Shown: piece by piece, positions 6,521 through 11,541 of the stretch
How positions within the stretch are numbered: position 1 is the stretch's first letter
Layout of the letters: the number at the start of each line of letters is the position of its first letter
Assembly: GCA_018350325.1 (NCBI GenBank)
Contig: JAEVLN010000001.1
Coordinates: 4,493,254 to 4,557,253 of the forward strand
Reading direction: 5' to 3'
Length of the DNA: 64,000 bases
Source of the DNA: Globodera rostochiensis
Taxonomy: Eukaryota > Nematoda > Chromadorea > Rhabditida > Heteroderidae
Made by a program: the position numbers and the translations under genes
Notes under the pieces: model-generated
What the model saw: the letters and a program-made list of their open reading frames with translations, nothing else
Databases searched by the model: none
What the model was told of the DNA's origin: nothing

Positions 6521-6757
6521 ACAGCAGGAGGCATGGAAAGGTGGGGGATTATTGCGGAGAGGGGGGGGGCGGATTTGGAATAAATATGATCGCATACGGA
6601 GTCTTGTAATATTTATGTCTGATCATTGAAAATCATCTCATAAACTTTGAAAACTCATTCCCGTCGTCGTTGCTTCCCTTCCCCCTCCTTCTCCATAGCC
6701 TCCGGCAATGCGTCCTTCTGTCCCTGTCGGCATTAACCTGTACCTGCTCAAAAGGCT
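5980..6757. other. Non-coding spacer with C/G homopolymers
   Basis: This stretch holds several G runs (about 6078-6094, 6490-6520) and a C run near 6308-6320. Open frames here are proline- or glycine-rich shadows of these runs. It may include the 3' UTR of the SIX1/2 gene. Confidence 0.5.
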
Positions 6758-8532
6758 CTATTTCCCTTTTTTTCTCTTCGAAGCCCACCTTCCCTCGGGT
6801 CCCACATATCCTCCGTACGCAATCCACGCCGCAGCGGCTAAGGCGGACGATGTTGGGACCGTCGTTGACGCATGTTGGGGCAGTGCCATCATCGGCGTCG
6901 ACGGCACTCTTTGCCGATTCTCCTGTCCGATGACGTCGATCAGCGGATTCTGCGTGTAAGAAGTGAGTTGTTGTGCTGGAAAGTGCGGTTGGTGTACAGC
7001 TGACGAGACGGAGGAGGAGGGCAGCAAAAACTGTTGTTGCTGCTGATAAAGGGCTTGCCGCTGAACAGATTCAAGTCCCACGCCCTTTCCCTGCTCTTCG
7101 TCGGCCTCCGTCTTCCCTATGCCCATCTCCAGCTTATTCTTCGCACTCAACATGGACGCCACCGCCACCGCGGACAGCTCATCCTCCTCGGCTGCTGATG
7201 AGTCACAAAATGTGTCATCAGTCGGACACAATTGAGCGCCTTCCTCTCTGCAAATTAAAGTTTATGACCGGCGTTCTTTTCCTGTCCAGACCCCCCCCCC
7301 CTCCGGTGATTACCTGCACCCGGCCGCTCTGTCCCTCTGTCGTCTGTTCTTGAACCAATTGGACACTTGTGTCGGCGTTAAACCCGTGCGTTCCGCCAGC
7401 TCCTTCTTCTCCTTGGGTGACGGGTAGGGGTTTAGCCGGTAGGACTCGCGGAGAATGGCCCTGGACCTCTCCTGAAGGGGCGGGACCGTTTCGTTTTACC
7501 CCCACCCCCCACTAATGGCTCACCCGGAAGCAGTAGCTGTTTACTCCCCCCCCCCCCAATGACTCACCCGGAAGCAGTAGCTGTTTACTCCCCCCCCCCC
7601 AATGACTCACCCGGAAGCAGTAGCTGTTTACTCCCCCCCCCCACTAATGACTCACCCGGAAGCAGTAGCTGTTTACTCCCCCCCCCCACTAATGACTCAC
7701 CCGGAAGCAGTAGCTGTTTACTCCCCCCCCCCCAATGACCCGGAAGCAGTAGCTGTTTACTCCCCCCCCCCCCCCAATGACTCACCCGGAAGCAGTAGCT
7801 GGTCTCCTCCCCGTCCCAAATGGTCCGAGGCAACGGAAACTTCCGTCTGATTCGGTATTTGCCGACGGCGCCCAACTCGCGGCCTCGCATTTTCTCGGCC
7901 TATTATTTGGAGTTCATTATATAATCTGTCGAAGAATTTTCTTATTTTCATCAAAACAATTTCCAAAATTCTGAAAAAGAGTCGGGGCCTTGCTTAGGCT
8001 ATTTGCCAATGTCACCTCGCAGTAATGCGCATGCATCCAAAGTTCCTAAAGGTCCGTTTTTATTTTGTTCAGAATGATTGATCCCGCGCCCTCCCACCAC
8101 CTGAAGTTCGGCATGGGTTTCTGGCGAAAAGTTGTGAGATTGAAGAATGGCGTAAAGCTCTTTGAAATTGTGCCGATGAAAGGAAATCACCGCCTGCGCT
8201 TTCAAAACTCCCTCGCTGAAGCGATATTCGTCCAGTGGGGGAATGGTCCACAGAAATTGGGCCTTGGGGGAGCGATTGATTGGTGCCAATGTTCGTTTTG
8301 CAAAGGCCTCACCAGTCGGTCAAGCAAATTATGCCGTTGCAAAACTTCGCAGAGAACGCCCACCTGTTCGACGCTAAACACAAATTCTGAGGAGGACGGT
8401 TGGGAGGGAATGGCACTGAAAGGGCGGGGGGGGGGGTGAATGGATTGGCGATGCGTTTGATGACCTGTGATGGAGATGGTGGTGCAGCTGAAGCTGTGGT
8501 GGGTGAGGGGGCATCATGGCCGAGGAAGCCAT
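6758..8532 (-). CDS. ceh-34: SIX1/2-class homeobox transcription factor (ceh-34-like)
   Basis: This is a sine oculis-class nuclear DNA-binding regulator, which in animals works with Eya in head, pharynx and muscle development. Seven exons (8532-8465, 8415-8313, 8262-8101, 8045-8016, 7899-7786, 7471-7314, 7247-6758) sum to 374 aa. A His-rich start is followed by the SIX domain ([88 protein letters not shown]). The homeodomain then has [20 protein letters not shown] and [15 protein letters not shown], with the class-specific Lys50. The rest is a Gln-rich, low-complexity tail. Intron 5 is filled with copies of the exon 5/donor junction. The end of exon 7 is the least certain part. Confidence 0.88.
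7517..7785 (-). repeat. Minisatellite duplicating the SIX gene exon 5 end and splice donor
   Basis: Six tandem copies of a roughly 37-47-bp unit sit in intron 5, directly after the true exon end. On the gene strand each unit reads TACTGCTTCCGGGTGAGTCA, the last 13 coding bases plus the donor, followed by a G run of 8-14 and AGTAAACAGC. Each unit thus carries a complete consensus donor. Units differ mainly in G-run length and in ATTG versus ATTAGTG. Confidence 0.9.
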
Positions 8533-9824: not shown

Positions 9825-11541
9825 TTAAATATTAACTCCAAATTTCGACTTTTGGTCGTTTTTCTGTTGCAGTCTGTGCTGCCGCGCTCTCTGACGCTGA
9901 TTTTTGAACCAATTTGAGACTTGGACAACGCTCAGTTGGGTCTTCCGCGCAAGACGAACTTTCTCCTCTTGTGAAGGCATATTATGACGTCGGTACGTCT
10001 CGCGCAGAATTTGACGTGCACTTTTCTGTCAAAGTTTCGTATAAACTTTTTGAGCAGGAATTTGTGGGAATCGCGAGGGATTGGATGAAAATATTTGTAC
10101 TTTTTAAGTGCGGGAATTTTTTGACGTTTTCACTGTTTCCTAAACGGGACCTTGAAGCAGTAGCTGGTGCCCTCGCCGTCCCAAATGCTCCGTGGGAATC
10201 CGTTCTTCTTCCGGATCCGATACCGTGACACCGGATCCAGCTGTTTCCCTCTCAGATGCTCCACCTTGTTTTGAAAGTCAATAAAAGATTTGTTGTCGAC
10301 GTTTTGTGGGGGGTTTTATTGGGGATACGGTGTTGGGGCTTTGTTGGGGATACGGTGTTGGGGCTTTGTTGGGGATACGGTGTTGGGGCTTTGTTGGGGA
10401 TACGGTGTTGGGGCTTTGTTGGGGATACGGTGTTGGGGCTTTGTTGGGGATACGGTGTTGGGGCTTTGTTGGGGATACGGTGTTGGGGCTTTGTTGGGGA
10501 TACGGTGTTGGGGCTTTGTTGGGGATACGGTGTTGGGGCTTTGTTGGGGATACGGTGTTGGGGCTTTGTTGGGGATACGGTGTTGGGACTTTGTTGGGGA
10601 TACGGTGTTGGGGCTTTGTTGGGGATACGGTGTTGGGGCTTTGTTGGGGATACGGTGTTGGGGCTTTGTTGGGGATACGGTGTTGGGGTTTTGTTGGGGA
10701 TACGGTGTTGGGGCTTTGTTGGGGATACGGTGTTGGGGCTTTGTTGGGGATACGGTGTTGGGGTTTTGTTGGGGATACGGTGTTGGGGCTTTGTTGGGGA
10801 TACGGTGTTGGGGCTTTGTTGGGGATACGGTGTTGGGGCTTTGTTGGGGATACGGTGTTGGGGCTTTGTTGGGGATACGGTGTTGGGGTTTTGTTGGGGA
10901 TACGGTGTTGGGGCTTTGTTGGGGATACGGTGTTGGGGCTTTGTTGGGGATACGGTGTTGGGGTTTTGTTGGGGATACGGTGTTTGGGGTACGGTGGGGA
11001 AGGCAGAATGTATTACATTCGACAGTCAGCATTCCTCACAAAACTCACCTCGGCGTAATGTGCCTCGTTCCACAGTCTCTGCAGAAGGGAATGGTCGCCG
11101 GGGACGAATTGGCTGTGTTGGATGAACGCGTACAATTCGCCAAACTGACGACAATGAAACAAGGAAAGTGCCTTGGCACGATGGAGAATGTCCCGTGCCG
11201 GATGGTTTGCCAATAAGCCGCAATATTTCTCAATTCGTTCCACAAAAAATGTCTGAAAGGGAGGGCAAATAAAATGCCAAAAGCAAACTATGAAATTAAA
11301 CTAACCAGTCCAGAAAAGTCGGCACAGTTTTCAAGGCACTGACAAATGCATGCGACCTGGTCAGCTGAGAAGAGGGACACGTCGTCTAATTGAGGAGGGA
11401 CACGGCTTCTGCTGATGAGAGAGGCGAAACGGGGAGGGGAGACGCATGGAAGCACTTTTTGAAGAGGGACTTACGGATGTTCTGCTGACGGCGATCTTTG
11501 TGAGGGGGAATTTGGACGACAAACTCTCCCGTAACTATCAT
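9825..11541 (-). CDS. Divergent SIX-family homeobox protein (possible ceh-33 counterpart)
   Basis: Five exons (11541-11475, 11385-11306, 11252-11049, 10264-10151, 10025-9825) give 221 aa. SIX-domain features are FSADQVACICQCLEN, ALSLFHCRQFGELYAFIQHS, LWNEAHYAE, LRGKQLDPVSRYRIRKK and SIWDGEGTSYCFK. The homeodomain is degenerate: ARQILRETYRRHNMPSQEEK and [16 protein letters not shown], with Gln for Arg52 and RAR for the usual RDR; Lys50 and Asn51 are kept. The fourth exon is 114 bp, exactly as in the neighbouring SIX1/2 gene, arguing for tandem duplication. The homeodomain lacks one residue at the exon join compared with SIX1/2. The start at 11541 is the first Met in frame; an upstream extension is possible. 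Confidence 0.8.
10316..10992. repeat. 25-bp tandem array, about 27 units
   Basis: The unit begins GGGGATACGGTGTTGGGGCT and continues TTGTT, repeating every 25 bp with only a few substitutions (GGGGTT, GGGACT). It fills the intron before the 114-bp SIX-domain exon of the divergent SIX gene. Because 25 is not a multiple of 3 and the unit lacks stops, several frames stay open for over 700 bp; these are not genes. Each unit has two GGGG runs. Confidence 0.97.

What the first reader, a model, noticed from the sequence alone, without database searches (positions are those of the whole stretch)
7517..7800. Minisatellite made from the SIX1/2 gene's own exon end plus splice donor
Six tandem units each repeat the last 13 coding bases of exon 5, the donor GGGTGAGT, a long G run and AGTAAACAG. 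The spliceosome thus meets the real donor followed by six perfect decoys, each also preceded by an AAACAG that could act as an acceptor of a 13-nt microexon. Using a decoy donor would shift the frame right before the homeodomain. A repeat that copies a functional splice junction in a developmental regulator is unusual and could be a copy-number-sensitive switch.
Basis: partly seen in the sequence, partly recalled or inferred. Interest (0 to 1): 0.75.

Follow-up and report, generated by a model that had tools for sequence, protein, structure and literature searches.

The report
Splice-donor minisatellite in a SIX gene
In a SIX1/2 developmental gene of a nematode (likely a potato cyst nematode) the end of exon 5 and its splice-donor signal are repeated six more times inside the next intron; only the first donor gives the normal protein, so splicing likely uses that one and the copies are probably a tolerated by-product of repeat growth that would make faulty messages if used.

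Summary
The array is real. On the minus strand, exon 5 of an 8-exon SIX1/2 gene ends at 7786; its last 16 bases, donor and G-rich intron start occur seven times head to tail (7801-7495): one real junction, six intronic copies. "Six perfect decoys" is wrong: four are perfect, one lost its donor (GTCATT), one is GTGAGC. The real donor and those four are the only five sites in the gene matching 8 or more of 9 consensus positions. Only the first donor gives the conserved SYCFR-ERSR protein; as assembled, no decoy keeps frame. Without the six units the intron is 52 nt, like its neighbours. Best reading: a minisatellite born by tandem duplication of the junction at a G run, likely spliced mainly from donor 0. 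A copy-number switch is untested. The kind is known: human IFI6 has a minisatellite reported to supply several donors. The same genome holds at least two more tandem duplications spanning exon-intron junctions in homeobox-type genes, one a perfect in-frame triplication of an exon end plus whole intron in another SIX gene. The species is likely Globodera rostochiensis.

The parts
8465..8532 (-). SIX1/2 exon 1 (from ATG, start codon inferred)
   Evidence: Heterodera trifolii protein also begins MASSAMM
8313..8415 (-). exon 2
8101..8262 (-). exon 3
8016..8045 (-). exon 4
7786..7899 (-). exon 5; its last 16 bases (7801-7786) are the first copy of the repeated exon piece
7472..7785 (-). intron 5, 314 nt, real donor CGG|GTGAGT at 7785, acceptor CCCCTTCAG ending at 7472
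7495..7801 (-). whole tandem array, seven units
7756..7801 (-). unit 0 (46 bases): real exon end and real donor
7717..7755 (-). unit 1 (39 bases): decoy donor lost, CGG|GTCATT at 7739
7672..7716 (-). unit 2 (45 bases): decoy donor GTGAGT at 7700
7627..7671 (-). unit 3 (45 bases): decoy donor GTGAGT at 7655
7584..7626 (-). unit 4 (43 bases): decoy donor GTGAGT at 7610
7540..7583 (-). unit 5 (44 bases): decoy donor GTGAGT at 7567
7495..7539 (-). unit 6 (45 bases): decoy donor GTGAGC at 7523; runs into the unique intron tail
7314..7471 (-). exon 6, most of the homeodomain
6789..7247 (-). exon 7
6638..6743 (-). exon 8, ends MSFQSL-stop, like MSYQSL in Heterodera trifolii

Best explanation
A seven-copy array of about 44 bases lies across the exon 5/intron 5 boundary of a nematode SIX1/2 gene; it likely arose by tandem duplication of that junction and is predicted to be spliced mainly from the first, exon-attached donor, so that the six copies would act as tolerated decoys. 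Steps: (a) shown: each unit is the last 16 exon bases, donor-like sequence and a G-rich intron start, ending AGTAAA in units 0-5; (b) inferred: a 52-nt ancestral intron was extended when a segment from inside exon 5 to just past the intron's G run was duplicated, and further unequal exchange multiplied it; (c) inferred: unit 0, which holds the working donor, took part in that exchange, because it shares the lack of AGT after CATT with units 1, 4 and 5 while units 2, 3 and 6 have AGT; (d) inferred: U1 can bind any of five identical donors, but only donor 0 has the rest of the exon upstream and only it gives the normal protein, so it is used most; (e) inferred: occasional decoy use would give messages with an intact SIX domain and no homeodomain, or messages that are destroyed.
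For: Unit layout, donors, frames. Gene model of 399 aa in 8 exons; Pfam SIX1_SD E 7.8e-43 and Homeodomain E 7.6e-16; SIX1 chain 4egc_A E 1.7e-83, aligned without a gap over residues 33-209, through the junction. Joining donor 0 to the acceptor at 7472 gives SYCFRERSR; the G. pallida (94% identity) and H. trifolii (69%) predicted proteins read the same. Of 152 listed homologues 149 match SYCF(K/R)E(K/R)S with no insertion, P0125 reads SYCFRESSR, P0124 differs and P0123 lacks SYCF (the 152 are the best 120 of 2060 and of 2265 hits). 52-nt intron left without the extra units against the gene's 45, 49, 50, 55, 66 and 116. The G run as a breakpoint: a truncated SIX1/2 duplicate on the same contig (3.1 kb locus L031) aligns with the gene only from the intron-5 G run onward, and its intron reads G-run-AAGTAAAATG, so the AGTAAA tail of units 0-5 looks ancestral. 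Tandem arrays are common here: 99 of period 8 or more, 13% of a 200 kb sample from C1 and C2.
Against: No RNA evidence was available, so donor use is unproven. In IFI6 downstream repeat donors are reported to be used (PMC4526556, passage), so identical decoys may not be ignored. The last donor gives a 52-nt intron of typical size and could compete. The homologues are mostly predicted proteins, not transcripts. G-run lengths and hence frames may be off.
Confidence: 0.72

Rival explanations
1. Copy-number-sensitive switch: more decoys divert more pre-mRNA to frame-shifted messages that keep the SIX domain but lose the homeodomain, lowering SIX activity or acting as an inhibitor.
For: Five donors with identical near context and 8 of 9 consensus matches, stronger than the gene's other six donors (6-7 of 9); every decoy breaks frame as assembled after the SIX domain is complete. 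IFI6 is reported to use downstream repeat donors.
Against: No transcripts, no copy-number variation, no conservation data. Two of six decoys are weakened, as expected if use is harmful or neutral; the four intact ones may simply be young copies.
Confidence: 0.1
2. Microexon or stepwise splicing: AAACAG serves as acceptor and each unit is spliced as a 13-nt exon.
For: AAACAG precedes each of the six copies; three or six 13-nt exons would keep frame; the gene model has odd acceptors such as CCCAAG and ATAATAG.
Against: Mini-introns of 26-33 nt against 45 or more elsewhere in the gene; no pyrimidine tract, a G run instead; decoy 1 has no good donor; 150 of 152 listed homologues show no insert.
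Confidence: 0.03
3. Proximal-donor use: splicing favours the last donor (52-nt intron) and the gene is becoming a pseudogene or makes only a SIX-domain protein.
For: 52 nt matches the typical intron size of this gene.
Against: Last donor is the weaker GTGAGC; the exon would carry in-frame stops; the reading frame downstream is intact and the protein is 94% identical to G. pallida.
Confidence: 0.07
4. Assembly artefact: wrong copy number or false array.
For: G homopolymers of 10-14 are hard to read; no raw reads could be checked.
Against: Units differ from one another (AGT present or absent, GAGT lost, T to C), and the array is short enough for one long read to span.
Confidence: 0.05

Closest known systems
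IFI6 (6-16, G1P3) minisatellite, Turri et al. 1995 NAR (title seen in reference lists; paper not held; one passage about it in PMC4526556)
   Same: A minisatellite in a transcript whose repeats supply splice donors
   Different: There downstream repeat donors are reported in use (three mRNA species). Its 12-nt, frame-keeping unit and its place at an exon end are recalled, not seen in a call. Here use is unknown and every decoy shifts frame as assembled, in a developmental regulator of a nematode, with G runs between donors
[quoted passage not shown]
   Same: Tandem duplication of DNA carrying splice signals; in the yeast genes a multiple 24-bp repeat is spanned by an intron
   Different: No new intron is shown here; an old intron was lengthened from its donor side
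Intron multiplication by internal duplication, Arabidopsis TOUCH3 (as described in PMC4974935)
   Same: Resembles the triplicated exon end plus whole intron in the C7 SIX gene
   Different: The SIX1/2 units hold only part of the intron

Membership tests
Minisatellite that supplies multiple splice donors (IFI6 kind) | tandem array covers the exon end and its donor | tested here: met
Minisatellite that supplies multiple splice donors (IFI6 kind) | repeat donors resemble working donors | tested here: met
   four of six decoys identical to the real donor, 8 of 9 consensus (consensus recalled)
Minisatellite that supplies multiple splice donors (IFI6 kind) | repeat donors are used in transcripts | not testable with these tools
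   no RNA data reachable
[quoted passage not shown]
   an intron at the same place (after SYCFK) is read by eye in the neighbouring paralogue, so the intron looks old and was only extended
SIX1/2 homeobox gene | SIX domain plus homeodomain, best matches SIX1/2 | tested here: met
Copy-number-sensitive splicing switch | copy number varies and changes isoforms | not testable with these tools
   one assembly only, no RNA

The most novel reading that the evidence does not exclude
This cyst-nematode genome is an active nursery of splice signals: tandem duplication across exon-intron junctions, here seeded at a G run, keeps multiplying donors, exon ends and whole introns inside homeobox regulators, so that copy-number change there alters proteins. 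The SIX1/2 array would be the donor-multiplying form and the in-frame triplicated SIX gene on C7 the exon-multiplying form.
Probability: 0.22. Interest if true: 0.68.

Novelty: new variant of a known kind. Interest (0 to 1): 0.46.

Why it matters
It is a natural test of how a spliceosome chooses among several donors with the same local sequence, in a gene where the wrong choice would destroy the DNA-binding domain. With the triplicated SIX exon on C7 it also gives two apparently young stages of exon and intron multiplication in one gene family of one genome, which makes models of splice-site gain directly testable with RNA reads.

Tried and rejected
A chance match was rejected: seven copies with an identical 16-base exon piece. 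A genome-wide class of G-run donor arrays like this one was looked for and not found: the pattern GGTGAGT-G7-GGTGAGT has 6 hits, 3 of them this array, against 30 for the reversed control; the other places, on C43 and C61, were read and show no clear exon. GGTGAGT repeated at 15-45 bases has 44 hits, 3 of them this array, against 176 for the reversed control. So donor arrays are not enriched; a true deficit is not claimed, since base composition and abundant repeats may explain it. In TRF units of the 200 kb sample GT[AG]AG occurs in 4 of 100 and the reversed motif in 9 of 100; in the window 1 of 18 and 1 of 18 (its overlap filter kept 100 arrays where one search kept 99). Of the places listed I read six more in full: only C34:2401500-2402700 looks like an array at a real donor; the other five look non-coding, or like coding repeats or coincidence (judged by eye from translations). 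RNA folding of the intron region gave z -2.1, with 4 of 100 shuffles as stable, and no clear story. Family searches for tandem exon copies (rows judged by eye: same strand, within 500 bases, same profile range): 0 pairs in 54 zf-C4 rows, 1 in 71 homeodomain rows (C12), 0 in 144 kinase rows (where 121 of 566 candidates were scored); these would miss pieces as small as the SIX1/2 one. The listings of paper searches gave no close case beyond PMC4974935.

Full report
What is there. The window lies at C1:4493254-4557253 of a 92.6 Mb, 80-contig genome. The minus strand of 8532-6638 holds an 8-exon gene of 399 codons with introns of 49, 50, 55, 116, 314, 66 and 45 nt (boundaries placed by hand, from homology and splice signals, no RNA). 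It has a SIX domain (residues 36-146) and a homeodomain (158-207), aligns without a gap to SIX1 in 4egc over residues 33-209, and is 94% identical to a predicted Globodera pallida protein and 69% to one of Heterodera trifolii. Published G. rostochiensis assemblies are 92, 96 and 101 Mb (PMC8359618, passages), none of them with 80 contigs, so the species is likely G. rostochiensis in another assembly; that is inference.

The array. Exon 5 ends at 7786 with CAGCTACTGCTTCCGG|GTGAGT. The same 16 exon bases recur starting at 7755, 7716, 7671, 7626, 7583 and 7539, each followed by donor-like sequence, a G run and, in units 0-5, AGTAAA. Unit lengths are 46, 39, 45, 45, 43 and 44, then a last unit that runs into the unique intron tail. 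The exon piece is identical in all seven copies. Donors: units 0, 2, 3, 4 and 5 GTGAGT, unit 1 GTCATT, unit 6 GTGAGC. In the gene span of 8532-6638 only five GT sites match the consensus MAG|GTRAGT (consensus recalled) at 8 or 9 of 9 positions, and they are the real donor and the four intact decoys; the other six donors of the model match at 6-7.

Consequences. Joining donor 0 to the acceptor at 7472 gives SYCFR-ERSR, the form found in 149 of the 152 listed homologues, with a 150th nearly the same. Decoys add 46, 85, 130, 175, 218 and 262 bases, none a multiple of three; decoys 5 and 6 also bring stop codons. The junction falls after residue 159, near the start of the homeodomain match, so decoy use would leave the SIX domain whole and lose the homeodomain. 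G-run length errors could change these frames. The acceptor-like AAACAG would make introns of 26-33 nt around 13-nt exons; three or six such exons would be in frame, but the introns would be shorter than any other in this gene.

Origin. Without six units the intron is 52 nt, in the range of its neighbours. A truncated duplicate of the gene 2.8 Mb away on the same contig (L031, C1:1673874-1674020 and flanks) matches the gene from the intron-5 G run through exon 6 and intron 6 into exon 7, and in the 3.1 kb read nothing of exon 5 was found. Its intron reads AAGTAAAATG after the G run, so the AGTAAA at the end of units 0-5 is probably ancestral and unit 6 has lost AG. The duplication thus joined intron ...AGTAAA to exon CAGCTAC (inference). 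Unit 0, which carries the working donor, lacks AGT after CATT as units 1, 4 and 5 do, while units 2, 3 and 6 have it; so the working junction has probably exchanged sequence with the array (inference). Two of six decoys have altered donors while no exon piece has changed; that is a weak hint of selection, or simply few events.

How common. In a 200 kb sample (10 stretches of C1, 10 of C2) 99 tandem arrays cover 13%, so minisatellites are frequent there. Places with repeated GGTGAGT are few and not enriched over a reversed control. Yet a protein search with exons 5-6 found a second case: a SIX-domain gene on C7 (Pfam SIX1_SD E 6.2e-41; its partial homeodomain scores 21.6 bits, under the cut-off of 22.9) has three identical 146-base copies of the last 87 bases of the exon that precedes the main homeodomain exon plus the whole 59-nt intron; copies 2 and 3 would add 29 residues each in frame. 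Its intron lies about three codons further on than that of SIX1/2, and no G run is in its unit. A homeodomain gene on C12 (rows of 40.4 and 39.4 bits; LIM type by eye) carries a 388-base, 98% matching two-copy duplication that by eye spans exons and introns. A control count found no such pair in 54 zf-C4 and 144 kinase rows.

Judgement. Structure and duplication origin are close to certain; mainly-first-donor splicing is likely but unproven; the switch is possible and untested. The kind is known from human IFI6, known here only through papers that cite it. Differences are the frame-breaking units, the G runs, the developmental gene and the recurrence of junction-spanning duplications in homeobox-type genes of this genome.

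Noticed in passing
L036, C7:575031-575433 (-): Another SIX-family gene with three identical tandem copies (146 bases) of 87 exon bases plus a complete 59-nt intron; the extra copies would be in frame (29 codons each).
   Followed up: yes
L031, C1:1673874-1674020 (-) and flanks: Truncated SIX1/2 duplicate (intron 5 tail to start of exon 7) whose homology starts at the G run of intron 5.
   Followed up: yes
L045, C12:2676938-2677717: 388-base two-copy tandem duplication, 98% matches, that by eye spans exons and introns of a LIM-homeobox-like gene.
   Followed up: partly
L041, C34:2401500-2402700 (+): Intron of a Gly/Cys/Gln-rich coding gene (by eye) that seems to start with a donor array: an apparent real GGTGAGT, one changed copy, then three GGTGAGT copies 49 bases apart in G-rich units.
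   Followed up: partly
window 10310-10989: 27-copy, 25-bp minisatellite inside an intron of the neighbouring SIX paralogue (minus strand, about 11560-9870, read by eye); its unit holds no GTRAG motif.
   Followed up: partly
window 1-64000: GC 48.8% against 40.5% in the sample; 14 of 18 TRF arrays carry a G or C run of six or more against 11 of 100 in the sample, so this region is unusually rich in G/C runs.
   Followed up: no
window 6638-5400: The G. pallida UniRef model P0121 (607 aa) appears to fuse SIX1/2 with the next gene; exon 8 here ends MSFQSL-stop at 6638.
   Followed up: partly
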